The notes below the pieces were generated by a model. It was not told where the DNA came from. It worked only from the letters and a program-made list of their open reading frames with translations, and made no database searches. This document shows positions 45,662 to 61,985 of a stretch of DNA of 64,000 bases, in pieces. A program made the position numbers and the translations under genes. The number at the start of each line of letters is the position of its first letter. The first letter of the stretch is position 1. This stretch comes from Micromonospora profundi (lineage in GTDB: Bacteria; Actinomycetota; Actinomycetes; Mycobacteriales; Micromonosporaceae): assembly GCF_011927785.1 (NCBI RefSeq), contig NZ_JAATJK010000001.1, positions 744,001-808,000 on the forward strand, written 5' to 3'.

Positions 45662-46052
45662 GTGCGCGCGCCGTTGTAGCGTCTGCCGGCCGGCGCTCAA
45701 GGATCGCACACAGCGCCGAAATACGACACATCCTATTCGAACGGTCCCAGGGGGGTCGTCCGTCATGGGGATATCCAAATAGGACAAATCAGTGCCGGGC
45801 GGTGAAGGGAGGGGCCGGTCAGGCGGCGTACGGCAGGACGCGTCCCCCAAAGCAGGGACCTGTGCCGGACACGCCCATTGCTAGCGTCGATAGGGCCTCA
45901 TAGATCACTTGTTGCAGGCCGACGATGCCGTTTCCGGCGGCAGTCGCTCGACCGAATACGCGATTCTGCCCTATGGCGATAAATGAGGAGACCGAACCCA
46001 ACCCGGATGGCAAAACCGTATAAACGGTAACCATGTGATTGCGGGGACATGC
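45662..46052. other. Divergent regulatory region at the cluster edge
   Basis: 391 bases, richer in A/T than the flanks, between the divergent SARP and LuxR starts. A small palindrome ACCGT-ATAA-ACGGT (46015-46028) is 24 bases from the LuxR start. A 71-codon minus-strand frame across 45819-46034 lacks a ribosome site and was not called. I could not see heptamer repeats of the SARP type clearly. Confidence 0.4.
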
Positions 46053-46700
46053 GTGATTCGCACCGATCTAGTGGTCAGCTCACCCATTTTCCTTGTTGGC
46101 CTCGTACAGACCCTGACAAACGCCGGAATCAAGATCGTCGCAGTTCGCACGTCGCCGGACGAGGATCCGAACTGGCTTGCCGACGCCGTACTCATCGACG
46201 TCGACGCATTGTCGCCGCCGAACGAATTGGATCAGATCACCGTCGCCGCGAAGAGTACGGCTGTCCTGGTCCTGGCCAATTACGAGGACGACGGCGCGAG
46301 CTACCTCGAGGCGGGCGCATCCGGAGTGATCTGCAAGCGCGAGTCGATCGAACGACTCGTCGAGGCCATCCGGGCCGTCACATCGGGGTACTGCGTGTCG
46401 TCCGGCGCGACCGACGCGCCGTCGGCCGCGCGGCGGGCCGATCCGCCCGCCCACCACCTGTCGGAGCGAGAGGAGCAGGTCCTCCGGCAGATTTCCTGCG
46501 GACTGACCCACAGCCAGATCGCCACCCGGCTCGGAATCAGTCCGCACACCGTGGATACCTACGTCAAACGAATCCGCGCAAAGATCGGCGCCGGCAACAA
46601 GGCCGAACTCACGCGGGCCGCCCTGCTCGGCGGCATGATTCGCGACGCGCCCCCGCCTCCCGAAGGGCGTCCGCCCAGGCCCGTGGAGCCCGCCGCCTGA
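46053..46700 (+). CDS. LuxR-family response-regulator-like activator
   Basis: 215 residues from GTG 46053, which has GGGGA 7 bases upstream (GTG 46035 is less likely). A pseudo-receiver fold (about 1-115) has DVDAL in place of the phosphorylated Asp region and no clear Lys, so phosphorylation is doubtful. The C-terminal LuxR helix-turn-helix (LSEREEQVLRQISCGLTHSQIATRLGISPHTVDTYVKRI) is intact. Such orphan regulators are commonly cluster-situated. Followed by a terminator. Confidence 0.8.
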   Translation: MIRTDLVVSSPIFLVGLVQTLTNAGIKIVAVRTSPDEDPNWLADAVLIDVDALSPPNELDQITVAAKSTAVLVLANYEDDGASYLEAGASGVICKRESIERLVEAIRAVTSGYCVSSGATDAPSAARRADPPAHHLSEREEQVLRQISCGLTHSQIATRLGISPHTVDTYVKRIRAKIGAGNKAELTRAALLGGMIRDAPPPPEGRPPRPVEPAA

Positions 46701-46775: not shown

Positions 46776-47870
46776 GTGGTCCAGTTCGAGATCTGCCCGA
46801 ACGGCGAGTGCCTGTCCGACGATCAACGCGCCGCCGCCCTGGCCCAGCCCAGCTTCGGCCGGCAGTTCACCGACCACATGGTCACGGTGCGCTGGACCGA
46901 GGAACGCGGCTGGCACGACGGGCGGCTGGAGCCGTACGGCCCGTTCACGCTCCCGCCGGCCACCTCGGTGTTCCACTACGGGCAGGCGGTCTTCGAGGGC
47001 ATGAAGGCGTACCGGCACGACAGCGGCTCGATCGCCCTGTTCCGGCCGATGGCGAACGCGGAACGGTTCAACCGCTCCGCGCGTCGGCTGGCGATGCCCG
47101 AACTGCCGGTGGACACCTTCGTGCGGGCCGTCGAGCTGCTCGTCACGCAGGACCGCGACTGGGTGCCGCCGGGCGACGGCAACAGCCTCTACCTGCGGCC
47201 CTTCATGATCGCGACGCAGCCCGGACTGGGCTTCACCCATCCGTCGAGCAGCTACCTCTTCTGCGTTATCGCGTCCCCGGCGGCGCCGTACTTCGGCCCG
47301 TCCGGTCCCCGGGCGCTGACCGTGTGGCTGTGCGACGACTACGTGCGCGCCGCGCCGGGCGGCACCGGCGACGCCAAGGCGGCGGGCAACTACGCCGGCG
47401 CGTTCCTCGCCACCCGGCAGGCCACCGCACAGGGATGCGACCAGGTGGTGTGGCTCGACGCCGCCGAGCACAGGTGGGTCGAGGAGATGGGCGGGATGAA
47501 CCTGTTCTTCGTGTACGGGGGGTCCCGCCCGCGGATCGTGACACCGAAGCTGACCGGCGCCCTGCTGCCCGGCATCACCCGCGACTCGCTGCTGACCCTG
47601 GCCGGAGAGCTGGGCATGGCCGCCGAGGAGGACCGGATGAGCACGTCGCGGTGGCAGTCCGACTGCGCGTCCGGCGCGCTCACCGAAACCTTCGCCTGTG
47701 GCACCGCGGCAGTGATCTCGCCGGTGGGTACGGTGCGGTCCACCACCGGCGACTGGCAGATCGGCGACGGCCAGCCCGGTCCGGTGACGCACCGGCTCCG
47801 GACCGCGTTGCTGGACATCCAGTACGGCCGAGGGCCCGATCCGCACCACTGGGTGCACAAGGTCTGCTGA
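46776..47870 (+). CDS. Branched-chain-type (class IV) aminotransferase
   Basis: 364 residues. Fold-type IV PLP enzyme of the IlvE group: VFHYGQAVFEGMKAYR (substrate loop), YLRPFMIATQP, PLP Lys201 in GDAKAAGNYAG, EEMGGMNLFFVY with the Glu that binds the pyridine nitrogen, and TRDSLLTLA. It interconverts branched-chain amino acids and 2-oxo acids. A second housekeeping IlvE presumably exists, so this copy is probably a cluster enzyme, re-aminating or making a precursor. GTG start with GAGGAG upstream. It is the first gene of a two-gene set. Confidence 0.88.
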   Translation: MVQFEICPNGECLSDDQRAAALAQPSFGRQFTDHMVTVRWTEERGWHDGRLEPYGPFTLPPATSVFHYGQAVFEGMKAYRHDSGSIALFRPMANAERFNRSARRLAMPELPVDTFVRAVELLVTQDRDWVPPGDGNSLYLRPFMIATQPGLGFTHPSSSYLFCVIASPAAPYFGPSGPRALTVWLCDDYVRAAPGGTGDAKAAGNYAGAFLATRQATAQGCDQVVWLDAAEHRWVEEMGGMNLFFVYGGSRPRIVTPKLTGALLPGITRDSLLTLAGELGMAAEEDRMSTSRWQSDCASGALTETFACGTAAVISPVGTVRSTTGDWQIGDGQPGPVTHRLRTALLDIQYGRGPDPHHWVHKVC

Positions 47871-47899
47871 CACCGACGTCGCGAACAGGAGCGCCGGTC

Positions 47900-49057
47900 G
47901 TGCGATTCAACAGCCGGACACGGAACACGATCGACTCGCCGATCAGCGCGGCCTACGACCTTGTGGACCTGCGGGAGAACGACGGGGCACTGCTCGACGT
48001 CGCGCAGGCGGCGCCGCAGTACCCGCCGGCGCGGGTCGTCGTCGAGCACATCGTGCGGACGGCACGTGCCACGGACGGTGGCGCGTACACCGAGGTGCCC
48101 GGTCTGCCCCGGCTGCGTCGTGCGTTCGCGGCCGAGCTGAGCCGCGACTACGGAGGGACCGTAGGGGCCGACAACGTGGTCGTCACGGCCGGCTGCAACC
48201 AGGCGTTCAGCCTGGTCGCCGCCGCCCTGGCCGGGCCCGGTCACGAGATCGTGCTGCCGCTGCCGTACTACTTCAACCACGACATGTGGCTGCGGCTGAA
48301 CGGCATCAGGCCTGTCTACCTGGAGCCCGGGCCGGACCTCGTGCCACGCGCCGCCGACGCCGAACGGCTCGTCACGCCCCGTACCCGCGCGATCGTGCTG
48401 GTGACGCCGGGCAACCCGAGCGGGGTCACTGTCGACCCGGACGGCATCGCGGCGTTCGCCGCGGTGGCCGAGCGGCACGGCATCGCGCTGATCCTCGACG
48501 AGACGTACCGGTCGTTCCGCGACACCGACGCGCCGGCGCACCGGTTGTTCGCCGGCCCGCACTGGGAACGCACAGTCGTCAGCCTGCACTCGTTCTCCAA
48601 GGACCTGGCCATTCCCGGCTACCGCGTCGGCGCCGTGGTCGCCTCCCCGGAACTCAACCGCGAGGTGTGCAAGCTGCTGGACTGCGTCGCGGTCTGCGCG
48701 CCGCGCATCGGGCAGGAGGCCGCCTGGGCGGGCCTGACGTACGCCCGAGGGTGGCGTTCCGTCCGGGCCCGGGAACTCGCCGATCGGCGGGCCTGGTTCA
48801 CCGACACGATGGCCGCCCGGCCCGGCGGCTTCGAGCTGCTCTCCTGCGGTGGCTTCTTCGCCTGGCTGCGGCATCCGTTCCCGGGCCGCTCCACCGACGA
48901 CGTGGTGCGCGAGCTGGTGGTCAAGCACGACACGCTCGTCATGCCGGGCACTGCCTTCCTTCCGGACGACCGCCGCACCGTCCGGGTGAGCGTGGGCAAC
49001 CTCGACCGGGACGCGATAGCGGCCCTCGCCCGCCGGTTCGCCGACGCGGGCCGCTGA
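47900..49057 (+). CDS. Class I/II PLP aminotransferase, candidate MppQ-like
   Basis: 385 residues from GTG 47900, preceded by AGGAG. Fold-type I: TAGCNQAFSLVAAAL (PLP phosphate cup), LVTPGNPSGV, ILDETY, PLP Lys234 in SFSKDLAIPGYRVG. It belongs to the large AspC-like group that includes the amino-transferring partner of MppP in enduracididine synthesis. In this context, I infer re-amination of the 2-oxo product of the MppP-like enzyme. It follows the class IV enzyme by 29 bases in one operon. True substrate unknown. Confidence 0.8.
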   Translation: MRFNSRTRNTIDSPISAAYDLVDLRENDGALLDVAQAAPQYPPARVVVEHIVRTARATDGGAYTEVPGLPRLRRAFAAELSRDYGGTVGADNVVVTAGCNQAFSLVAAALAGPGHEIVLPLPYYFNHDMWLRLNGIRPVYLEPGPDLVPRAADAERLVTPRTRAIVLVTPGNPSGVTVDPDGIAAFAAVAERHGIALILDETYRSFRDTDAPAHRLFAGPHWERTVVSLHSFSKDLAIPGYRVGAVVASPELNREVCKLLDCVAVCAPRIGQEAAWAGLTYARGWRSVRARELADRRAWFTDTMAARPGGFELLSCGGFFAWLRHPFPGRSTDDVVRELVVKHDTLVMPGTAFLPDDRRTVRVSVGNLDRDAIAALARRFADAGR

Positions 49058-49066
49058 ACCGTCGGG

Positions 49067-50095
49067 TCAGTAGATGATCCGGTCGTCCGCCGCAGGCCGC
49101 CACGCCCGGGAACCGCGCAGGTTACGGGTGATGTTGAGGCGCTTCAGCCAGCGGTCGGAGCCGTCGTAGCGCGCCCGGAACGACTTGCGCCCGTGCACCG
49201 CCCGGAAGTTGTCGACGAACAGGCAGTCGCCGGGGCGCAGGCGGACGTCCTGCATGTGCGCCTCGATCTGGTCGCACAACGCCTGGAACGCGCCGAGCGA
49301 CCGCTCGGACCAGCCGTCGGTCTTCATGTGGTACGGATCGAGCGCCATGTACGGATCGGTGCGGTCGCCGAAGAGCACCGGCCGCTTGACCGGGTCGTCG
49401 TTCCACGACTGGATGAGCGCGAAACTGCGCCGACGCAGCCGGTCGACGACCGGGTCGCCGGTGGACTCGGAAGCGTTCTCCGGACGGTGCGAGTTGTCCG
49501 GCATCTGGGTGAACTCCGACTCGAACAGGGCCTCCACGTCCAGCGCGGACCAGTCGAGGTCACCGGCGTCGCACGCGACGGTCTCCACCAGGTCCGGGTT
49601 CTTGAGGCACATCAGCGCCACGTAGTCGCCCCGGCAGGGATGGAACGCGTCCTCGGTGTGCCAGGACAGGTGCTGGAGACTGTTGGAGCCGATCTCGTAG
49701 TGCTCGTGCCCCTCGATCGGGAGCACGTCGTGCATGATGCGGCCGTCCTGCTGGGTCGCCCAGCCGAACACGTCGCCCAGCACGGAGCCGCACAGCAGGA
49801 AGAAGATCTCCTGCGGCAGGGCGGGGGAGTCGTACTGGCTGTTGCGCCAGTGCGGCGGCGTCGGGCCGAGCTGCTCCAGCTCGATCTCGAGGCCCGAGAT
49901 CAGGCAGAGGGCGGACGGCTCGCCGAGGCGGTACTCCTCAAGGAACTCCAGCACATGCGTCGGCAGAAGCCGCGCGAGAACCGGTGCCCGCCGGATCAAC
50001 CCCGGCTCCTCGATGGTCTTGTACGCCCTCGCGAGCTCGCTGAGCATCGGTGTCAATGCCGCGTTGTCCGCCGGAGTGAGCGTCAGGTGATGCAC
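49067..50095 (-). CDS. VioC/OrfP-type Fe(II)/2-oxoglutarate-dependent arginine hydroxylase
   Basis: 342 residues. It matches VioC (viomycin arginine 3-hydroxylase) over GDVFGWATQQDGR (108-119 here), DVLPI.G.EH, LSWHTEDAFHPCRGDYVAL and DRWLKRLNITR. The iron triad is His146, Glu148 (WHTED) and His301 (AVHGRK). VioC makes 3-hydroxyarginine; OrfP makes 3,4-dihydroxyarginine; MppO acts on enduracididine, and which reaction occurs here is open. The gene lies convergent to the aminotransferase and divergent from the MppP-like gene. Confidence 0.9.
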   Translation of the reverse strand: MHHLTLTPADNAALTPMLSELARAYKTIEEPGLIRRAPVLARLLPTHVLEFLEEYRLGEPSALCLISGLEIELEQLGPTPPHWRNSQYDSPALPQEIFFLLCGSVLGDVFGWATQQDGRIMHDVLPIEGHEHYEIGSNSLQHLSWHTEDAFHPCRGDYVALMCLKNPDLVETVACDAGDLDWSALDVEALFESEFTQMPDNSHRPENASESTGDPVVDRLRRRSFALIQSWNDDPVKRPVLFGDRTDPYMALDPYHMKTDGWSERSLGAFQALCDQIEAHMQDVRLRPGDCLFVDNFRAVHGRKSFRARYDGSDRWLKRLNITRNLRGSRAWRPAADDRIIY

Positions 50096-50295
50096 GCGTG
50101 GCCTCCCGCTGGCCGAGGTGGTCCGCCGACGGCGACCTGCCGTTGCAGCCTATGGTCGCGGGCTGCGGCCCTGCGGTCCCCGGTAGAGGGGACAGGTGCA
50201 CCGACCCCGGCGACCCTAGGTTCGTCCTAGAAATCATCTGCTGGGTCCACGCCGTAGCCCGTCAGCCGGCGTGCCGACACCCTCGGGACTGACAT

Positions 50296-51426
50296 ATGAC
50301 CGAGCTTGCCAATCTGACCACGATGGAAGTCGACGCACTGTCCGACGTCGACGGTGGCCTCAACCTGACCGACGGGCACGCCCGGCTGGATCTCTCCACC
50401 GAGCAGGCCGCGATCGTGGCTCGGCTCCCCGAGATGTTCACGACGGCGACCCGTCGGTCCTTCCCGTCGATCGAGACGGCGGCCCACCGCGCGTTCCTGG
50501 ACGCGATCGGGCAGCACACCGCACCGGTGGGTACCGGCCGGATCCTGAGCTGCTACTCCTCCACGCTTGCCACCGATATCGTGGCCCGCGCGCTGCCGGC
50601 CGGCGCCACGATCGCCGTGTTGCACCCGACGTTCGACAACATCGCCGACCTGTTCACCACGCGCGGCCTCAAGCTGGTGCCGCTGAGCGAGGAGGCGATG
50701 CTGGACCAGTCCTGGCCCGGCGCCCCGGTGCAGGCGATCGTCCTCACCCATCCCAACAACCCCACCGGTCTGGTCACGCCGGAAGGTCACCTGCGCTCGC
50801 TCGCCGAGCATGCCGTCGAGCACGGGCAGACCGTCATCATCGACGCCAGCTTCCGGGGCCAGGTCCGCGACGCGCAGTACGACACGTACGCGGTCCTCGA
50901 CGCGGCCGGCGCGGACTGGATCACGATCGAGGACACCGGCAAACTGTGGCCGATGCACGAGCTGAAGATCGGGCTGCTGGCCTACAGCGAGCGGACCGAT
51001 CTGCCCCTGGAGCGGGCCTTCTCCGAGTCGCTGCTCGCCGCTTCGCCTGTCGTGTTGCAGCTGGTCGAGGCGCTCGCCTCCGACTGGGTGAACGGTGGCT
51101 ACGAGCGTGCGCGCGATCTCGTGGAGCGCAACCGGGCGGCGGTACGGGAGGCGATCGAGCCGGCCGGCCTGCGACTGGCCGACCCGACCTCACAGATCAG
51201 CGTGGCCCGCATCGGCCTGCCGCAGAACGGGCCTGACTCGTCGCTGCTGTACAAGGACATGCGCGAGCGGGGCGTGCACGTGCTCCCGTGCGCGCCGTTC
51301 CACTGGGCCGACCCGGATGGCGGCCTGCGCCTGATCCGGCTGTCCCTGGCCCGGCCGTTCGAGACCGTCCAGACGGCCGCCCAGACGCTCGTCCGCGCCT
51401 ACCGCGAACTGGCCGCCGCCAACTGA
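50296..51426 (+). CDS. MppP/RohP-type PLP- and O2-dependent L-arginine hydroxylase-oxidase
   Basis: 376 residues. It aligns with MppP over the whole length: LNLTDGHARLDLS (with the His of DGHAR, His28, that is essential in MppP), GRILSCYSST, HPTFDNIADLF, HPNNPTGLV, IDASFRGQV, and IEDTGKLWP with PLP Lys216. MppP and RohP convert L-arginine and O2 into 4-hydroxy-2-oxoarginine; they do not transaminate. Those are the entry enzymes of enduracididine and azomycin synthesis. This is the strongest assignment in the cluster. ATG start. It faces the VioC-like gene across 200 bases of shared upstream DNA. Confidence 0.9.
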   Translation: MTELANLTTMEVDALSDVDGGLNLTDGHARLDLSTEQAAIVARLPEMFTTATRRSFPSIETAAHRAFLDAIGQHTAPVGTGRILSCYSSTLATDIVARALPAGATIAVLHPTFDNIADLFTTRGLKLVPLSEEAMLDQSWPGAPVQAIVLTHPNNPTGLVTPEGHLRSLAEHAVEHGQTVIIDASFRGQVRDAQYDTYAVLDAAGADWITIEDTGKLWPMHELKIGLLAYSERTDLPLERAFSESLLAASPVVLQLVEALASDWVNGGYERARDLVERNRAAVREAIEPAGLRLADPTSQISVARIGLPQNGPDSSLLYKDMRERGVHVLPCAPFHWADPDGGLRLIRLSLARPFETVQTAAQTLVRAYRELAAAN

Positions 51427-51429
51427 GGA

Positions 51430-51476
51430 GCCGCCGCGCGCCCGGGGACGGGAAACCGCCTCAGGCGCGCGGCGGC
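51430..51476. terminator. Bidirectional terminator between MppP-like and VioD-like genes
   Basis: A perfect 13-bp stem, GCCGCCGCGCGCC (51430-51442) and GGCGCGCGGCGGC (51464-51476), between convergent genes; the second arm includes the last codons of the VioD-like gene. Confidence 0.7.
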
Positions 51477-52591
51477 CGAACGTCTTCCCGCAGCACCCGG
51501 TCGAGCAGCGCGAGACCCGCGGTGAGCTCGGCGGTGCTACCGCCGAATCCGAGCCGGACGTGGTTGCGGTAGGCCTCGCCGAAGCACACGCCTGGTACGA
51601 GCAGCACCCGGTGCTGCTCGGCCAGCCGGCGGCAGGAGGCGACGACATCCGGTTGGCCGAGCAACTCGACGAACGCGGCCACCCCGCCGGCGGGCGGGCT
51701 GAGCCGCACCAGTTCCGGCCGGTCCGCCGCCCAGTCGATGAGCAACTGCCGGTTGGCGCGGGCGTGCTCCCGCTGCATGGCCACGATCCGGTCCGCGTGC
51801 CGGACCGCCTGCTCGGCGAAGAACTCCAGGACCGGCGAGACGTACAACGCGATGTAGTCGCGCAGCACCGCCATCCGGGCCAGCAGCTCCGGGGGCGCGA
51901 CACACCAGCCGACTCGCAGCCCGGCCAGGCCGTAGCTCTTGGAGAACGTGCCCCACACGATCGACCGCTCGTACTCGACAGGGATCGGCAGCGGGTCGGC
52001 AGTGTAGGTGAGTTCGCCGAACGCGTGGTCCCACACCAGCCAGGCACCCGCATCGGCGGCGATCGCTACCAGTTCCTTCTGCTGCTCGGCAGTGATGGAC
52101 ACACCTGTCGGGTTGTGCGGGAAGTTCACGACGATCATCCGCGGCCCGTGCGCCGCCAGCTCGCGCAGCACGGACAGGTCGGCGGCGAACCCGGCGTCCG
52201 GGTCCAGCTGCCACCGGGTCACCCGGCAACCCCGGGACGCCGCGATGTCGTACAGCTGCTGGTAGGCGGGGTCGAGCACGATGATCTCGTCACCCGGATC
52301 CAGAGCCAGGTGCATGACCAGGTAGATCGCCTCGCTGGAGCCGTGGGTGACCATCATCCGGTCGACGTCGCCGCCGGTCCACCGGTCGGCCAGCGCGGCA
52401 CGCAGCCGGTTGCCGCCGTAGCTCTCGCTGTCGTGGAACACCATCTCGTCGAGCTCGGACAGCTCGAACCCGCACAGGGCGCGGAACTCGTGCATGGACA
52501 GGTCGCGTACCCCGCTGCTGCCGATGTCGTGGTCAACCTTGTGGTAGTAGTCGCGCATCCAGGCTTCGAGGTGGGCAACGGCGATTTCCAT
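51461..52591 (-). CDS. VioD/OrfR-type PLP enzyme (capreomycidine- or streptolidine-synthase-like)
   Basis: 376 residues. Aligns with VioD at DIGSSGVRD, THGSSEAIYLV, IVVNFPHNPTGV, WDHAFGELTY, GTFSKSYGLAGLRVGWCV (PLP Lys218) and RDYIALYVSPVLEF. VioD cyclises 3-hydroxyarginine to capreomycidine; OrfR cyclises dihydroxyarginine to streptolidine. With the VioC-like hydroxylase 1.4 kb away it completes that pathway. The start ATG 52591 gives the family N-terminus; the open frame upstream is not coding. Confidence 0.88.
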   Translation of the reverse strand: MEIAVAHLEAWMRDYYHKVDHDIGSSGVRDLSMHEFRALCGFELSELDEMVFHDSESYGGNRLRAALADRWTGGDVDRMMVTHGSSEAIYLVMHLALDPGDEIIVLDPAYQQLYDIAASRGCRVTRWQLDPDAGFAADLSVLRELAAHGPRMIVVNFPHNPTGVSITAEQQKELVAIAADAGAWLVWDHAFGELTYTADPLPIPVEYERSIVWGTFSKSYGLAGLRVGWCVAPPELLARMAVLRDYIALYVSPVLEFFAEQAVRHADRIVAMQREHARANRQLLIDWAADRPELVRLSPPAGGVAAFVELLGQPDVVASCRRLAEQHRVLLVPGVCFGEAYRNHVRLGFGGSTAELTAGLALLDRVLREDVRPPRA

Positions 52592-54267: not shown

Positions 54268-57200
54268 GTGATCGGCATCCACGATTCCGCTAAAAGCCTC
54301 GTCGCCGTACCGGATTCCGCTCGTCCCGGCCCCGGCGCCGGGACCACCGTGCCGGACCTGATCCGGGCCGTGGCGCACAGGCTGCCGGACGCGGTGGCTG
54401 TGGAGTCGGCAGGCAACCGTCTCACGTACGGTCAGCTGCTAGCGGAAGCCTCCGGGGTGGCCGAGGCGCTGCGCCACGCGGGCGTCGGGCCAGGCGAGCT
54501 CGTCGCGGTGGCGGTACCCCGCGGAGTCGACCTGGTGCCGGCGCTGCTCGGTGTCCAGCTCGCCGGCGCGGCGTACGTGCCGCTCGATCCCGAGCACCCG
54601 GCCGACCGGCTGAACCACGTCATCGCGGACTCCGGGGCGCGGATCCTGTTGACGGCCGACGCGGCCGGCGCACCCGGCCTGCGCGTACCGACCCGCATCC
54701 AGCTGACCGACGTCGCGGTGTGCCGCAGCCCGGTGCACCCCGCGCCGCTGCACCCGGACGCCACCGCGTACGTCATCTACACCTCCGGCTCGACCGGCCG
54801 GCCCAAGGGCGTCGTGGTGACACACGGCGCCTTCGCCAACTTCATCGAGTCGATGCGCGAGCGCCCCGGTCTGCCCGACGCGGTGGTGCTTCCCGCCGTG
54901 AGCACCGTCTCCTTCGACATCGCCGGCCTGGAGCTGTTCCTGCCGTTGACCACCGGCGGCCGGGTGGTCGTCGCCCGGCACGGCGAGACGAGCGACCCGC
55001 GCCGGCTGGCGGCGCTGCTCGCCGACACGGGCGCACGGGTCATGCAGGCGACACCGATCACCTGGCGGCTCCTGCTGGAGGCCGGCTGGTCGCCGCCGCC
55101 AGGCTTCACAGTGCTGTGTGGCGGGGAGCGGCTGCCGGCCGAGCTCGCCGAGCGGTTGCTCGGCGAGGGGGTCGTGCTCTGGGACCTGTACGGGCCGACG
55201 GAGACGACAGTGTGGTCGGCCGTCACCCGCCACGAGCGGGGCACTCCGGCCCGGTTCCACCCGGTCCGGGGGACCTCGCTCCGGGTGCTCGACGCGGGGC
55301 TGCGGCCGGTCCCGCTGGCCGAGGAGGGCGAGCTCTACATCGGTGGCGCCGGCGTCGCCACCGGCTACCTGGGCCGCCCGGCCCTGACCGCCACGCGGTT
55401 CGTCGCCGACCCGGACGACGCCGGAGCCCGGCTCTACCGCACCGGTGACATCGCCCGACGACACCTGGACGGGCGGATCGAGATCCTCGGCCGCAGCGAC
55501 GACCAGATCAAGATCCGTGGGTTCCGGATCGAGCCCGGCGAGGTAGAGCACCTGCTGGCTGGCCATCCCGGTGTGGCCGAGGCCGCGGTACGGGCGTTCG
55601 GCGGGAACGACGAGAACGCCCGGCTGGTGGCCTACATCCGGCCTGTCGATCCGGCCGACCCGCCCGACGCCCGGCACCTGCGGCAGCACCTCGCCCGCTG
55701 CGCGCCGGCCTACCTGGTACCGGCCCAGTTCGTCGTCCTGGACGAGCTGCCCCGTACGCCGAACGGCAAGCTGAACCGCTCCGCCCTGCCCCGGCCCGCC
55801 GAGCCGACCGGACCGGCCGCGACCACCGGCCGTACGTCCCCGGACGAGCCGGCCGGCGGCACCACCGAGCAGCGGATCGCGGCGATCGTGGCCGAGGTGC
55901 TCCAACGACCCGAGGTCGACCCGCACGAGGACTTCTTCGCCCTCGGCGGCGACTCGCTGCGCGCCGTCCAGATCGTGCTCCGGCTCAACGAGGAACTGCA
56001 GACCGAGGTGCCGATCAACGCGCTGTTCGAGGCCCGCACCGTCTACGGAATCGCGGCGCTGCTGGACGGCGACCGCACGGCCGGGACGCCGGCCGGAGCG
56101 CCGCGCGACGCGGGCGACGCCCGGCTCTCCGCAGCGCAGTGGCGGCTCTGGCTGCATCAGCTGGCGGCACCGGACAGCACCGTCGACAACACACCGGTGG
56201 TCGTCCGGCTGCCCGGCCCGGTCGACAGCACAGCCCTGGAGCGGGCAGTGACCGGCCTGCTGGAACGCCACGCGATCCTGCGTACCCGCTACGAACCGGA
56301 CCCGTCCGGCCTGCCGGTCCCGGTCGTTCAGCCGGCGTCGCCGCAGCGCCTCGCCGTCGAGGACGGCGACCCCGCGGCGATCCTGGCCGAGGAACTGGAC
56401 CGCCCCTTCGACCTCGCGGCCGCACCCCCGGTCCGGGTCCGCCTGGTGAGCCGGCCGGCCGACGAGTACGCGTACCTGCTGATGGTGGTCCACCGCATCG
56501 CCGCCGACGACCGGTCCCGGGAACTGATCGCCGATCAGGTACGGGCCGCGTACCGGGGTCGCACGGTGCCCGCCCCGCTGCTCGGCTACGCCGACGTCGC
56601 GCGGTCGCAGCGCGAGCATTCGGCGGGCCCGGCCGCGCGACGGCACCTCGACTTCTGGCGGGCCACGCTGTCCGGGGCCGCCGCGGTCGAACTGCCAGCC
56701 GACCGGCCACGGCCGGAGGTGCGGGACTGGCGCGGCGGCCGGGTGTGCTTCGACCTGCCGGCGGCCGTCGTGCGGGCACTCGACGACGTCGCGGCGGACC
56801 GGGACGCGACACGGGGCACGGCCCTGCTGGCAGGGCTGTCCGCCCTCCTGGCCCGTCGCACCGGCGGGACGGACGTGACCGTGGGCGTGCCCGTGGCCGG
56901 CCGCGACCGCCCCGGACTGGAGCACGTCGTGGGCATGCTGGAGGAGACGGCCGTGATCCGCGTCGACATCGCCGGCGGCATCGGCTTCCGGGACCTGCTC
57001 GGCCGCGTGCGCGCGGCAACTGTCGCCGCCGCGGAGCACGCCGTACTGCCGTTCGAGGACATCGTCGGCGCGGTGCCCACGACGGCGCAGGCCGAAGGCC
57101 GCAACCCCCTGTTCGACGTCTTCTTCGCCGACCACGGCATCCCCGCCCACCCGGCGGGCTTTCCACTGCCACATCCGCCCGCATCCCGGTACGACCTGTC

Positions 57201-57357
57201 CTGCGACCTCACCGCACGTGCCGACGGCGGCGTCGACGGCGGCCTGGTGTACGCCACCCAGTTGTTCGACGAAACAACTGTCGCCCGCCTCGCCGGCGAC
57301 TACGTGGCCCTGCTGGCGGAGGTCGCCGCGAACCCCGACGCTCCGGTGGTGTCCTGA
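54268..57357 (+). CDS. NRPS, A-PCP-C, predicted to activate glycine
   Basis: 1029 residues. Adenylation domain (about 30-510) with A3 YTSGSTGRPKG (171-181), A5 LYGPTETT, A7 LYRTGD, and A10 Lys501. The specificity residues by alignment to GrsA are D-I-L-Q-L-G-L-V-W, nearly the glycine code DILQLGLIW. Carrier domain (535-600) with Ser563 in LGGDS. Condensation domain (615-1025) whose HHxxxDG motif is HRIAADD (742-748), so the catalytic His is replaced by Arg. No MbtH gene is in view. GTG start after GGAGGAG. It overlaps the P450 gene by one base. Confidence 0.92.
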   Translation: MIGIHDSAKSLVAVPDSARPGPGAGTTVPDLIRAVAHRLPDAVAVESAGNRLTYGQLLAEASGVAEALRHAGVGPGELVAVAVPRGVDLVPALLGVQLAGAAYVPLDPEHPADRLNHVIADSGARILLTADAAGAPGLRVPTRIQLTDVAVCRSPVHPAPLHPDATAYVIYTSGSTGRPKGVVVTHGAFANFIESMRERPGLPDAVVLPAVSTVSFDIAGLELFLPLTTGGRVVVARHGETSDPRRLAALLADTGARVMQATPITWRLLLEAGWSPPPGFTVLCGGERLPAELAERLLGEGVVLWDLYGPTETTVWSAVTRHERGTPARFHPVRGTSLRVLDAGLRPVPLAEEGELYIGGAGVATGYLGRPALTATRFVADPDDAGARLYRTGDIARRHLDGRIEILGRSDDQIKIRGFRIEPGEVEHLLAGHPGVAEAAVRAFGGNDENARLVAYIRPVDPADPPDARHLRQHLARCAPAYLVPAQFVVLDELPRTPNGKLNRSALPRPAEPTGPAATTGRTSPDEPAGGTTEQRIAAIVAEVLQRPEVDPHEDFFALGGDSLRAVQIVLRLNEELQTEVPINALFEARTVYGIAALLDGDRTAGTPAGAPRDAGDARLSAAQWRLWLHQLAAPDSTVDNTPVVVRLPGPVDSTALERAVTGLLERHAILRTRYEPDPSGLPVPVVQPASPQRLAVEDGDPAAILAEELDRPFDLAAAPPVRVRLVSRPADEYAYLLMVVHRIAADDRSRELIADQVRAAYRGRTVPAPLLGYADVARSQREHSAGPAARRHLDFWRATLSGAAAVELPADRPRPEVRDWRGGRVCFDLPAAVVRALDDVAADRDATRGTALLAGLSALLARRTGGTDVTVGVPVAGRDRPGLEHVVGMLEETAVIRVDIAGGIGFRDLLGRVRAATVAAAEHAVLPFEDIVGAVPTTAQAEGRNPLFDVFFADHGIPAHPAGFPLPHPPASRYDLSCDLTARADGGVDGGLVYATQLFDETTVARLAGDYVALLAEVAANPDAPVVS

Positions 57358-58664: not shown

Positions 58665-61600
58665 ATGGCGCGTCCCATTGCGGAGACATCCCCGGCTGAG
58701 CCCGTTCACTTCCAGGAGGAGCCGTTCGGCGTGGACGGCGAGCGGTCGTTGCCGCCCCGTACCCCGTACGAGGACGCGCTCGTCGGCATCCTGCACGAGG
58801 TCCTCGGTTGCACCGACGTCGACGTGCAGGACCCCCTGCTCACGCTGGGCAACGTGGCCCAGGTGCCCCGGGTGGTCGCGCAGATCCGGCGTACGTTCGG
58901 CGTGGACATCCCGGTGGCGGACTACATCGAGTCACGTACGGTCGCCGGCCTGGCGTCCGTCGTGGCCGCGAAGTCGTTCGCCGCCCGCGCGGCGACCCGG
59001 CCGCAGGCGCTGCTGCGCCGGCCCTCCGGTGCCCGGCCGGTGCTGTCCTTCGACCAGCAGCGGCTGTGGATGGAGAACCAGCTGCTGCCCGGCGTCATCT
59101 ACAACGTGCACGGGCGGCGGCGCATTCTCGGGTCGCTGGACGTCGAGGTCCTCGAGCGCAGCATCAGCGCGATCATCGCCCGGCACGAGACGCTACGCAC
59201 CCGGTTCCCGGCCACCGACGGTGAGCCGGTGCAGGTGGTGGACGACCCGGACGACGACTGGCACATCCGGATCAGCGACCTCACAGGCCTGCGCGAGCAG
59301 GGCGGTGACGCGTCCGTCGAGGCGGCGGCCTGGCGCCTGCTCGACGAGGAACTCACGACGCCGTTCGACCTGACCACCGGCCCACTGATCCGCTGCCTGC
59401 TCGTCAAGCTCGGGGAACGGGAGCACGCGCTCGGCGTCACGATGCACCACATCGTGTCCGATGCCTGGTCGATCGGCATGTTCATCCGCGAACTGACAAC
59501 TCTGTACCGGGCCGGCGGCGACCCGCAGCGGGCCGGCCTGTCCGCGCTGCCCGTGCAGTACCGCGACTACGCGGTGTGGCAGCGCGGCTGGCTCTCCGGC
59601 GACGCCCTGGAGCACCAGGTCGGCCACTGGCGGCAGCACCTGCAGGGCGCACCACGGGTCCTCGCGCTGCCGACGGTGCAGCGGCGGACGAACGCGTTGC
59701 GGGCCGAGGCCGGCCAGGTCGTCGACGCGCTGTCGCCGGCGGAGACGGCGGCGCTGCACGAGCTGTGCCGTACCCACGGCGTCACCTCGTTCATGGTGCT
59801 CTACGCGATCCTGGCGACCATCTTCAGCCGGTGGGCCGGGCAGACCGACGTCGTCATCGGGGTCCCCGTCGCGGGCCGGACCAACAGCGTCACCGACCGG
59901 CTCATCGGGTTCTTCGTCAACATGCTGCCGCTGCGCGTCGACCTGTCCGGCGACCCGGACTTCGCCAACCTGCTCCAGCGCGTGCGGCGAGCAGCCCTGG
60001 ACGGCTACGCCCACGCCGAGGCCCCCATGGACGAGTTGGTCCGCGACCTCGACATCGTCCGCGACCCGCGCCGTACGCCGCTGTTCGAGGTTGTCCTCAA
60101 CGTGGTGGCGAGCCCGGAGGCCGAGCAGGTCACCGACCTGGCCATCGAGCCGATGGACACGCCGTCGCTGTTCAGCCGCTACGACCTGACGTTCACCGCG
60201 CAGGAGTCCGGCGGGGTGCTGCGGTTCAAGCTCGACTTCCCGGCCGACCGCTGCGACCCGGAGACCGGCCGGGTGCTGCTCCGGCAACTGCGCACGCTGC
60301 TGGGTCGGGCTGTCCAGGACCCCACCGTTCGGCTGCTCGACGAGCCCGCCGAGCCTCCGGTCGCCGCCGAACCGGCGTACACCCTGGCGCCCCTCGACCT
60401 CCGTCGGCCCGACGGCGCCGACCTGGTCGCCGTGGTGGACGGCGAAGGGGAGTGGAGCTACGCGTGGATGTCGGTGGCCGCGGAGCGGATCGCCGAGGTG
60501 CTGGCCGAGCGCGGAGTCCGGGCCGGCGACCGCGTCGGCGTGGTGCGCCGGCCGAGTGCCGCATTCGTCGCCAGCCTGCTCGGTGCGGCCGGGGCCGGGG
60601 CGGTGGGCATGGTTATCGAAACCGACGACCCGGCGCTGACCGGACCTCTCGAACTCACGACGGTGCTGGACGGCAACCCCGCAGGTGCGCCGGCCGCCGG
60701 CACTGTGGACCTGCGGACGGTCCTGCCGGCTGCCGCAGGCCCGCTCCCCGCGCCGAGCGGCGGTCCCGCCGCGACGGCGCCGGACGACTGGGCGGCCCAG
60801 CGCTTCGAGTTCGGTCCCGGCGACCGGTTCGTTGTGCTGTCCAGCCGACCCGGTCACCTGATGTCGGCGATGCGCACCGCCTTCGCCGCCGGCGGCACCC
60901 TGTTGGTTCCGGACCGTGCGTTCGGCGCCGACGCCGGGGCGCTGACCACCTGGCTGCGCGAGAAGGCCGTCACTGTGGCGTACGTCGACGCGCCGATCCT
61001 GCGGGCGATGACGGCGCAGACGCCGGTGCCCGACCTGCCGGCGCTGCGCTACGTGCTGATGGACAACGCCGGTGACCTGCTGCCGCACGACGTCGAGGCG
61101 GTGCGGGAGATGGCACCGGGGTGCCGTTGCGTGGCGGTGTACCGGGTGACGGCGGACGGCCGCCCGCTCTGCTGCTACGAGGCGCCGCAGGACATGGAGG
61201 TGCGCAACGCGCCGCTGCGTGTCCCGCTGGGCACCCCGCTGCCCGGCATGCCTGTCACGCTGCGGCGGGCCTCCGGACAGCCGGCCGCGACCGGGGAACT
61301 CGCCGAGATCTGGTTCGGCGACGAACGTACCGGTGACCACGGTCGCCGGCGTGCCGACGGGTCCGTGGAGTACGCCGTCGTGTCGTCCGGCGGCGAGTAC
61401 GTCGACGCTGCCGAGACACTCTCCGGCCTGCGCGACGTCCCAGGGGTCCGGGATGCTGTCGTGCTGACGCAGACCGACGCCGACGGGGCGACCACGCTGT
61501 CGGGCTATGTGGCAGGGCCGGATCCGGAGCGGGGTGCCGCCGCGATCCAGAGCCATCTCAAGGCGCGCCTGCCCGACTACCTGGTGCCGCGGCACCTGCT

Positions 61601-61985
61601 CGTGCTTGACGCTCTTCCGCGCACCCCGTGGGGTGAGTACGACCTGCGCGCACTGCCCCGGCCCAGCGGCGACGCCGGGCTCGGCGACGACTACGCGGCG
61701 CCGCGTACGCCGATGGAGCGGCAGCTCGCCGAGTTGCTGGCGGAACTGCTCGGCATCGAACGGGTAGGCATCTACGACAGCTTCTTCGAGCTGGGCGGCT
61801 TCTCGATGCTCGCGACCCGGCTGATCACCCGGGTACGCGACGTCTTCGGGGTCCAGCTCGCGGTGCGTGACGTGTTCGAGTCGCCGACAGTCGACGAACT
61901 GGCGCGGCTCGTCGTCCGCGCGCAGGGGGAGCAGTCCGGCCTGGACGAGTTCGAGGCGCTGCTGGACGAGGTCGAGCGGGCCTGA
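58665..61985 (+). CDS. NRPS with inactive carrier and adenylation-like domains (PCP*-C-A*-PCP)
   Basis: 1106 residues. Residues 33-100 look like a carrier domain but the Ser site reads LGNVA (Ala65). A condensation domain (125-555) has intact HHIVSDAWS (His261-262, Asp266). The next 430 residues (about 560-985) have the size and secondary pattern of an adenylation domain but lack A3 (no SGSTG), A5 (no GPTE), A7 TGD and the A10 Lys (PRTPWGEYDLRAL replaces PNGK). A final carrier (1005-1080) keeps Ser1047 in LGGFS. It cannot load itself, so it must be charged in trans. No thioesterase follows. Confidence 0.85.
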   Translation: MARPIAETSPAEPVHFQEEPFGVDGERSLPPRTPYEDALVGILHEVLGCTDVDVQDPLLTLGNVAQVPRVVAQIRRTFGVDIPVADYIESRTVAGLASVVAAKSFAARAATRPQALLRRPSGARPVLSFDQQRLWMENQLLPGVIYNVHGRRRILGSLDVEVLERSISAIIARHETLRTRFPATDGEPVQVVDDPDDDWHIRISDLTGLREQGGDASVEAAAWRLLDEELTTPFDLTTGPLIRCLLVKLGEREHALGVTMHHIVSDAWSIGMFIRELTTLYRAGGDPQRAGLSALPVQYRDYAVWQRGWLSGDALEHQVGHWRQHLQGAPRVLALPTVQRRTNALRAEAGQVVDALSPAETAALHELCRTHGVTSFMVLYAILATIFSRWAGQTDVVIGVPVAGRTNSVTDRLIGFFVNMLPLRVDLSGDPDFANLLQRVRRAALDGYAHAEAPMDELVRDLDIVRDPRRTPLFEVVLNVVASPEAEQVTDLAIEPMDTPSLFSRYDLTFTAQESGGVLRFKLDFPADRCDPETGRVLLRQLRTLLGRAVQDPTVRLLDEPAEPPVAAEPAYTLAPLDLRRPDGADLVAVVDGEGEWSYAWMSVAAERIAEVLAERGVRAGDRVGVVRRPSAAFVASLLGAAGAGAVGMVIETDDPALTGPLELTTVLDGNPAGAPAAGTVDLRTVLPAAAGPLPAPSGGPAATAPDDWAAQRFEFGPGDRFVVLSSRPGHLMSAMRTAFAAGGTLLVPDRAFGADAGALTTWLREKAVTVAYVDAPILRAMTAQTPVPDLPALRYVLMDNAGDLLPHDVEAVREMAPGCRCVAVYRVTADGRPLCCYEAPQDMEVRNAPLRVPLGTPLPGMPVTLRRASGQPAATGELAEIWFGDERTGDHGRRRADGSVEYAVVSSGGEYVDAAETLSGLRDVPGVRDAVVLTQTDADGATTLSGYVAGPDPERGAAAIQSHLKARLPDYLVPRHLLVLDALPRTPWGEYDLRALPRPSGDAGLGDDYAAPRTPMERQLAELLAELLGIERVGIYDSFFELGGFSMLATRLITRVRDVFGVQLAVRDVFESPTVDELARLVVRAQGEQSGLDEFEALLDEVERA

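What the first reader, a model, noticed from the sequence alone, without database searches (positions are those of the whole stretch)
46776..52591. Arginine-tailoring set that combines VioC/VioD-type and MppP-type chemistry
Seen: a VioC-type hydroxylase (His146/Glu148/His301), a VioD-type PLP cyclase (Lys218) and an MppP/RohP-type PLP oxidase (Lys216, His28) within 3.6 kb. Known: VioC then VioD gives capreomycidine, or via OrfP/OrfR streptolidine, while MppP gives 4-hydroxy-2-oxoarginine for enduracididine or azomycin. I know of no characterised cluster that uses both. Inference: MppP-like plus the neighbouring aminotransferase supplies 4-hydroxyarginine, which the VioC-like enzyme hydroxylates at C3 and the VioD-like enzyme cyclises, giving streptolidine or a hydroxycapreomycidine by a new route. 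Alternatively, two guanidino amino acids are made.
Basis: partly seen in the sequence, partly recalled or inferred. Interest (0 to 1): 0.92.

Follow-up and report, generated by a model that had tools for sequence, protein, structure and literature searches.

The report
Hybrid four-enzyme cyclic-arginine building-block cassette
Four arginine-modifying genes in a Micromonospora genome, of kinds known from two separate antibiotic pathways, are inherited together in other actinobacteria and probably make an extra-hydroxylated ring-shaped arginine for peptide antibiotics by a new route.

Summary
A VioC-type Fe/2OG hydroxylase (49067-50095 -), an MppP-type PLP oxidase (50296-51426 +) and a VioD-type PLP cyclase (51461-52591 -) lie within 3.6 kb, beside a class I/II aminotransferase, AT (47900-49057 +). 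It is no chance neighbourhood: of 20 genomes with this MppP clade, 20 have the AT and 16 have all four, from at least four families. Each of the 16 also has an adenylation domain with an unusual code (DVEEIG...). At >=60% identity it was found in 6 of 552 Micromonospora and Streptomyces genomes, the six with all four genes. Relatives beside three ordinary VioC/VioD pairs read DVEEAGVCTK. MppR, the enduracididine cyclase, is not near the set in the five genomes searched. Best reading: MppP plus AT put OH on C4, the VioC-type enzyme on C3, the VioD-type enzyme closes a six-membered ring, and an NRPS loads the product, a hydroxycapreomycidine. Every chemical step is inferred. 'No characterised cluster uses both' is too broad: mannopeptimycin joins a VioC homologue (MppO) with MppP. 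I saw no paper with VioD and MppP in one cluster.

The parts
46035..46700 (+). LuxR-type regulator, often close to the set
   Evidence: GerE domain; homologues at 48-71% in 12 of the 19 other genomes, in the stretches read
46776..47870 (+). branched-chain aminotransferase (IlvE II); accessory
   Evidence: NF009897 475 bits over 307; homologues in 10 of the 19 other genomes, in the stretches read
47900..49057 (+). class I/II aminotransferase, proposed to turn 4-hydroxy-2-oxoarginine into 4-hydroxy-L-arginine
   Evidence: PRK07550 458 bits over 366; 62-77% homologue in 19 of 19 other genomes with this MppP clade, including two that lack VioC and VioD of this kind
49067..50095 (-). VioC-type Fe(II)/2-oxoglutarate hydroxylase, proposed C3 hydroxylase; triad H146/E148/H301, pocket E134/G136/Y255
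   Evidence: TIGR03946 503.7 over 418.6; tree; pocket residues
50296..51426 (+). MppP-type PLP oxidase, K216, H28; proposed L-arginine C4-hydroxylase/deaminase
   Evidence: phmmer to 5dj1 1.5e-84; trees; of 26 columns that I picked, all equal MppP except T25
51461..52591 (-). VioD/OrfR-type PLP cyclase with E9, S25, S26, K218
   Evidence: TIGR03947 535.3 over 390.9; cyclase residues (PMC10367076); tree
54268..57357 (+). NRPS A-T-C, code DILQLGLVWK (glycine-type, as I recall): first of the NRPS genes that probably use the building block
   Evidence: Pfam, code

Best explanation
The four genes are one pathway to one NRPS building block, a hydroxylated six-membered cyclic arginine (4-hydroxycapreomycidine or a C4 epimer). 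Proposed order: (1) the MppP-type oxidase turns L-arginine into 4-hydroxy-2-oxoarginine; (2) the neighbouring aminotransferase re-aminates it to 4-hydroxy-L-arginine and could salvage the 2-oxoarginine side product; (3) the VioC-type enzyme hydroxylates C3; (4) the VioD-type enzyme eliminates the C3 hydroxyl and closes the guanidine on C3; (5) an NRPS A domain with code DVEEIG... loads the product. Streptothricin's OrfP does both hydroxylations alone; here they would be split between a PLP enzyme pair and an iron enzyme. Shown: presence, open frames, co-inheritance, clades, signature residues, the co-occurring A domain, no MppR near the set in five genomes. Inferred: every reaction, the order, the stereochemistry and the product.
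For: Co-inheritance: of 20 genomes with this MppP clade, AT in 20, VioC-type of this clade in 18, VioD-type in 16, all four in 16. Gap to other family members among the loci held: VioC 65-91% inside versus at most 47% outside; VioD 62-94 versus 49; MppP 72-96 (two further members at 68) versus 52. Six distance correlations r 0.59-0.64, each reached by 0 of 2000 permutations. MppP+AT without VioC/VioD of this kind in G169 and G174, so this pair can serve by itself. A domain DVEEIG[VC][VC][ST] in 16 of 16 complete genomes; at >=60% identity in 4 of 160 Micromonospora and 2 of 392 Streptomyces genomes, the six with all four genes, everything else listed at most 49%. DVEEAGVCTK lies beside VioC/VioD pairs in G478, G522, G445. 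VioC model above GntD model for the window enzyme, as in OrfP-like and VioC-like controls, reversed in the MppO control. Cyclase residues E/S/S/K present. Glu134 in the substrate pocket in 19 of 19 clade rows (18 genomes) and 0 of 36 others (Leu in VioC, Gln in OrfP).
Against: No biochemistry and no known product. The MppP-type protein scores under the TIGR04462 cut-off (247 versus 450). The aminotransferase is only a generic family match. OrfP does both hydroxylations, so an MppP pair is not logically needed. The A domain in the window's genome lies 66 kb from mppP, so its membership in the same cluster is inferred. The VioC/GntD score order is not diagnostic: L175, beside a VioD gene, has the MppO-like order. 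Other VioC/VioD loci lack the DVEE code: G302 (viomycin-like) and G268 in the 15 and 12 kb read; G202 has SAEEVGVATK. G162 and G170 have VioC-type + AT + MppP without a VioD found (7 kb contig; broken-up locus).
Confidence: 0.58

Rival explanations
1. Two guanidino amino acids: VioC/VioD make capreomycidine (or OrfP-like hydroxycapreomycidine) on their own, while MppP plus the aminotransferase make free 4-hydroxyarginine for another position or product.
For: MppP+AT occur without VioC/VioD of this kind in G169 and G174; VioC/VioD pairs without this MppP occur in Streptomyces; three genomes hold a second arginine-like code (G161 DAEDVGTVVK, G173 DAEDIGTIVK, G033 DAEHVGTITK).
Against: Among the 16 VioC and 22 VioD matches over cut-off in 392 Streptomyces genomes, members of this clade were only in G163 and G172, both with MppP+AT; the VioC-type pocket differs at Glu134 from the 36 other rows; in the stretch of the window's genome that was scanned only one A domain has acidic residues at 239/278.
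Confidence: 0.17
2. Beta-hydroxyenduracididine by guanitoxin logic: MppP+AT give 4-hydroxyarginine, the VioD-type enzyme acts like GntC and closes a five-membered ring, and the VioC-type enzyme acts like GntD/MppO and hydroxylates C3 afterwards.
For: The GntD model is also above its cut-off (421 over 345); GntC works on 4-hydroxyarginine without MppR (PMC10367076, named sections); no MppR near the set in five genomes.
Against: GntC model 240, under its 415 cut-off; VioD model 535 over 391. The MppO control scores GntD 485 > VioC 381, the window enzyme 421 < 504. GntC N52/T84/H250 read D/S/L in the window protein as in OrfR, by my reading of the alignment. The A-domain code is like that beside three VioC/VioD pairs, not the enduracididine code DAEDVAAMIK given in PMC12283262.
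Confidence: 0.13
3. The MppP-type enzyme is a desaturase like Ind4, so the pathway gives a dehydro-arginine and in the end a dehydro-capreomycidine.
For: Ind4, a related PLP enzyme, forms a C=C bond (PMC7497351, passages); clade-specific T25 beside D26/H28.
Against: The clade is in a starred set with MppP (100/100) apart from 6c3a (Ind4 itself was not in the tree); the other 25 of 26 columns that I picked equal MppP.
Confidence: 0.08

Closest known systems
Streptolidine pathway of streptothricin (OrfP, OrfR)
   Same: Fe/2OG arginine hydroxylase plus PLP cyclase with E/S/S/K signature giving a hydroxylated six-membered cyclic arginine; pocket Gly136 and Tyr255 as in OrfP (and in most other rows)
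   Different: OrfP does both hydroxylations alone; here MppP and an aminotransferase are added, Gln142 of OrfP is Glu134, and both proteins fall in clades of their own
Viomycin/capreomycin capreomycidine pathway (VioC, VioD)
   Same: family models VioC and VioD both met; an A domain of the DVEE type is seen beside three VioC/VioD pairs of other clusters
   Different: extra MppP and aminotransferase; pocket residues E-G-Y instead of L-S-D
Mannopeptimycin enduracididine pathway (MppO, MppP, MppQ, MppR)
   Same: VioC homologue and MppP-type oxidase side by side
   Different: no MppR near the set in five genomes searched, a different aminotransferase (best PDB match is not MppQ), a VioD-type cyclase present
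Guanitoxin steps GntB, GntC, GntD
   Same: C4 hydroxylation, PLP ring closure and C3 hydroxylation as a set
   Different: GntB is a membrane hydroxylase; GntC model under cut-off here; ring size predicted to differ
Faulknamycin (fau/flk) clusters
   Same: VioC homologue feeding a capreomycidine residue in an NRPS peptide
   Different: no VioD-type gene in that cluster (PMC8399532, passages) and no MppP mentioned in the passages seen

Membership tests
VioC arginine C3-hydroxylases (TIGR03946) | family score above curated cut-off | tested here: met
   503.7 over 418.6
VioC arginine C3-hydroxylases (TIGR03946) | His-X-Glu...His iron triad, substrate Asp and Arg | tested here: met
   H146, E148, H301, D253, Arg of RWLKR
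VioC proper | pocket Leu156/Ser158/Asp270 and grouping with viomycin VioC | tested here: not met
   Glu/Gly/Tyr; separate starred clade
OrfP dihydroxylase | pocket Gln142/Gly144/Tyr257 and grouping with OrfP | tested here: not met
   two of three residues shared, Glu instead of Gln; separate clade
MppO/GntD enduracididine hydroxylases (NF041363) | family score above cut-off and above the VioC model | tested here: inconclusive
   421 over 345 but below its VioC score; the MppO control has the opposite order, and so do L175 and L177
VioD/OrfR capreomycidine cyclases (TIGR03947) | family score above cut-off | tested here: met
   535.3 over 390.9
VioD/OrfR capreomycidine cyclases (TIGR03947) | Glu, Ser-Ser and PLP Lys of OrfR (E15, S31, S32, K225) | tested here: met
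   E9, S25, S26, K218
VioD/OrfR capreomycidine cyclases (TIGR03947) | six-membered ring formation | not testable with these tools
   needs an enzyme assay
GntC (NF041364) | family score above cut-off | tested here: not met
   239.8 under 415
MppP arginine oxidases (TIGR04462) | family score above cut-off | tested here: not met
   247.1 under 450
MppP arginine oxidases (TIGR04462) | grouping with solved MppP and catalytic Lys/His | tested here: met
   starred set of 20 rows with 5dj1, 6c3a outside; K216, H28
MppP/Q/R enduracididine pathway | MppR present in the cluster | tested here: not met
   five genomes searched: sub-cut-off matches away from the set in G000 and G018, none in G091, G033, G068; the other 16 genomes were not searched for MppR

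The most novel reading that the evidence does not exclude
A dedicated five-part cassette, PLP oxidase + aminotransferase + a VioC-type enzyme specialised for 4-hydroxyarginine through Glu134 + VioD-type cyclase + its own A domain, makes a hydroxycapreomycidine (possibly the C4 epimer of the OrfP/OrfR product) by splitting the two hydroxylations between two unrelated oxidation chemistries, and is spread through at least four actinobacterial families in differing NRPS clusters.
Probability: 0.5. Interest if true: 0.72.

Novelty: new variant of a known kind. Interest (0 to 1): 0.62.

Why it matters
Cyclic arginines are rare and sit in several important peptide antibiotics. A further route, found by a simple gene signature and tied to one A-domain code, would give a genome-mining hook for the 16 clusters seen here, none of which I could match to a product, a source of an unusual amino acid, and a clear test of how a VioC-type pocket is retuned for an already hydroxylated substrate.

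Tried and rejected
The BCAT as the partner aminotransferase: not found in the stretches read of 9 of 19 other genomes, whereas the PRK07550-type one is in 20 of 20. The aminotransferase as a GntC-like cyclase: GntC model 223 under 415, and by eye it lacks the Ser-Ser pair. Papers naming the product: searches listed nothing on it. Rows dropped: HSPs with a stop or under 80% query cover were left out, so the VioD tree (36 rows) lacks the VioD-type proteins of G165 and G172; one search took them back for the tallies (39 sequences) but the VioD tree was not rebuilt. No tree was built for the aminotransferase, and its distant relatives were not gathered, so its clade is not tested. The 'P450b' query was cut in a wrong frame (4 stops) and its rows are not used. 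The A-domain searches scored only 9 and 3 candidates per genome, so copies could be missed. A-domain codes come from an alignment to one reference domain, with position 517 assumed Lys. The columns compared in MppP were picked from recall.
Full report
What is there. The window is G000:C1:744001-808000 of a 6.93 Mb genome. The set is: AT 47900-49057 (+), VioC-type 49067-50095 (-), MppP-type 50296-51426 (+), VioD-type 51461-52591 (-), with a LuxR regulator and a BCAT upstream and NRPS genes downstream.

Is it more than a neighbourhood? A protein search of 160 genomes of the genus found this MppP clade in 4 (own, G091 84%, G033 79%, G018 75%) and a distant 33% relative in G068. A scan of GTDB contigs gave 17 loci, in Asanoa, Planomonospora, Pseudonocardia, Streptomyces, Nocardia, Phytohabitans, Herbihabitans, Nonomuraea, Streptosporangium, Micromonospora and an unplaced actinobacterial MAG; one is G018. 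That makes 20 genomes. Whole-genome searches and tblastn give: AT 20, VioC-type of this clade 18, VioD-type of this clade 16, all four 16. The 16 lie in Micromonosporaceae, Streptosporangiaceae, Streptomycetaceae, Nocardiaceae and the MAG. The four that lack some: G162 (7 kb contig, no VioD found), G170 (broken-up locus, no VioD; its MppP matched over 239 residues only), G169 and G174 (MppP and AT side by side, no VioC or VioD of this kind). G068 has none of the partners. Gene order varies: the VioD gene is up to 31 kb from mppP (G160) and one AT is 93 kb from it (G166), so the linkage is not that of one fixed block.

Clades. Within the set VioC-type proteins are 65-91% identical, VioD 62-94, MppP 72-96, AT 60-87 (16 genomes). 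The nearest family members outside, among the loci held, are at 47% (VioC), 49% (VioD) and 52% (MppP) to the window protein; for the AT no outside relatives were gathered. Trees: the VioC clade (19 rows, 100/100) is apart from viomycin VioC, OrfP and the MppO rows of mannopeptimycin-like loci L124-L126, with the deep order open (55 rows). The VioD clade (15 rows, 82/88, not starred) is apart from VioD and OrfR (36 rows). The MppP clade lies in a starred set with solved MppP, sister to L129-L131, while 6c3a (RohP, as I recall it) lies elsewhere. Distances of the four families correlate (r 0.59-0.64; 0 of 2000 permutations each); shared species descent contributes to this.

A fifth member. Each of the 16 complete genomes has an NRPS A domain with code DVEEIG[VC][VC][ST] (positions 235-331); G168 shows a second, partial copy (L032, 59%). 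In the window's genome it is at G000:C1:860014-861573, outside the window, 66 kb from mppP. At >=60% identity it was found in 4 of 160 Micromonospora and 2 of 392 Streptomyces genomes, the six with all four genes; the others listed reached at most 49% (Fisher p 2.6e-14, which treats genomes as independent; only 9 and 3 candidates per genome were scored). The best of those others include G478, G522 and G445, where the domain stands beside a VioC/VioD pair and reads DVEEAGVCTK. Arginine domains are reported to cluster as D-A/V-E-D-I/V/L-G-A-V/I-T/D and enduracididine as DAEDVAAMIK (PMC12283262, passages). So the A domain points to a capreomycidine-like guanidine. Counter-evidence: the viomycin-like locus G302 showed no such code in the 15 kb fetched, G268 with a VioC/VioD pair showed DSALIAEVWK only in 12 kb, G202 and G385 (VioD carriers) read SAEEVGVATK, and G194 and G218, not among the VioD carriers, have fairly similar domains with DVENVGAVTK and SVEQVGEVSK.

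Which side of the families? The window VioC-type scores VioC 504 > GntD 421, like the OrfP-like (543 > 416) and VioC-like (565 > 397) controls; the MppO control is reversed (485 GntD > 381 VioC), as are L175 and L177. L175 stands beside a VioD gene, so this score order is a hint and not proof. VioD-type scores VioD 535, GntC 240; OrfR-like control 536 and 197. The cyclase residues described for OrfR and GntC (PMC10367076, sections 3, 9 and part of 10) are all present. In CmnC/VioC/OrfP three pocket positions affect substrate orientation: L/S/D in CmnC and VioC, Q/G/Y in OrfP (PMC9513391, passages). The window clade reads E/G/Y in 19 of 19 rows (18 genomes); Glu at the first position occurs in 0 of 36 other rows. 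A new acidic group in the pocket fits a changed substrate such as 4-hydroxyarginine; that is inference.

How it most likely works. MppP converts L-arginine with O2 into a 4-hydroxylated 2-oxo acid, with 2-oxoarginine as side product (PMC10367076 section 3; PMC7497351 passages). In the enduracididine pathway MppR then closes the ring on the oxo acid and MppQ re-aminates. Here, of five genomes searched for MppR, G000 and G018 have sub-cut-off matches away from the set, and G091, G033, G068 none. The constant partner of this MppP is instead an aminotransferase, also in the two genomes without VioC/VioD of this kind; there the pair stands near a LysA-like decarboxylase and, in G169, SbnA/SbnB-like genes, and the A-domain scan found no NRPS in the 40 kb read. 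The simplest reading is re-amination of the open-chain oxo acid to 4-hydroxy-L-arginine. VioC-type C3 hydroxylation and VioD-type elimination and ring closure then give a hydroxycapreomycidine, the compound that OrfP/OrfR give in streptothricin (PMC9513391), perhaps with another C4 configuration.

Known or not. A VioC homologue with MppP is known from mannopeptimycin (MppO; PMC11496134, passages), and loci L124-L126 show the pair; MppQ- and MppR-like frames beside it in L126 I recognised by eye only. VioD and MppP in one cluster was not met in searches of the held open-access library, where most papers were seen as listings; I saw passages or sections of eight papers (PMC10367076, PMC8399532, PMC13285481, PMC6710260, PMC11496134, PMC12283262, PMC9513391, PMC7497351). 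Most subscription papers are not held, and no MIBiG comparison was possible. I therefore file it as a new variant of a known kind: known enzyme families in a new, conserved combination.

Noticed in passing
L001:3826-6572 (G000:C1:811826-814572), just after the window: A chlorinating enzyme (TIGR01762, 304 over 226), a haem-oxygenase-like diiron protein and a fatty-acid-desaturase-like protein follow an A-T-TE NRPS; the same block with 62-80% identity is in Streptosporangium L040.
   Followed up: partly
window 58665-61985 (+): C-A-T NRPS whose A domain looks degenerate (AMP-binding match in two pieces, 68 bits, no normal core motif seen), with homologues at 40-58% in five related clusters: possibly loaded in trans.
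   Followed up: no
L003:10460-15097, C-terminal part: The domain after the DVEEIG A and T (motif GGDSI) looks by eye like an epimerisation domain with altered motifs (HRLVADAW here, HHLVADVTS in L216, no GHGRE).
   Followed up: partly
L149:1-7900 and L147:1-8450: MppP + aminotransferase without VioC/VioD of this kind, near a LysA-like decarboxylase and, in L149, SbnA/SbnB-like genes and a MATE exporter: a possible small non-NRPS product.
   Followed up: partly
G491:C1:2121237 and G465:C12:107434 (L177, L178): A VioC/GntD-type hydroxylase lies 27 kb from an MppP over the TIGR04462 cut-off in two Streptomyces genomes.
   Followed up: no
L129-L131: A sister clade of MppP (49-52%) occurs in 20 kb stretches without AT, VioC or VioD matches, beside genes I did not identify.
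   Followed up: no
window 46776-47870 and related loci: BCAT homologues often stand near an A domain with code DVFWLGGT[FY]K in related clusters (L025, L029, L035, L037, L038, L040, L143).
   Followed up: no
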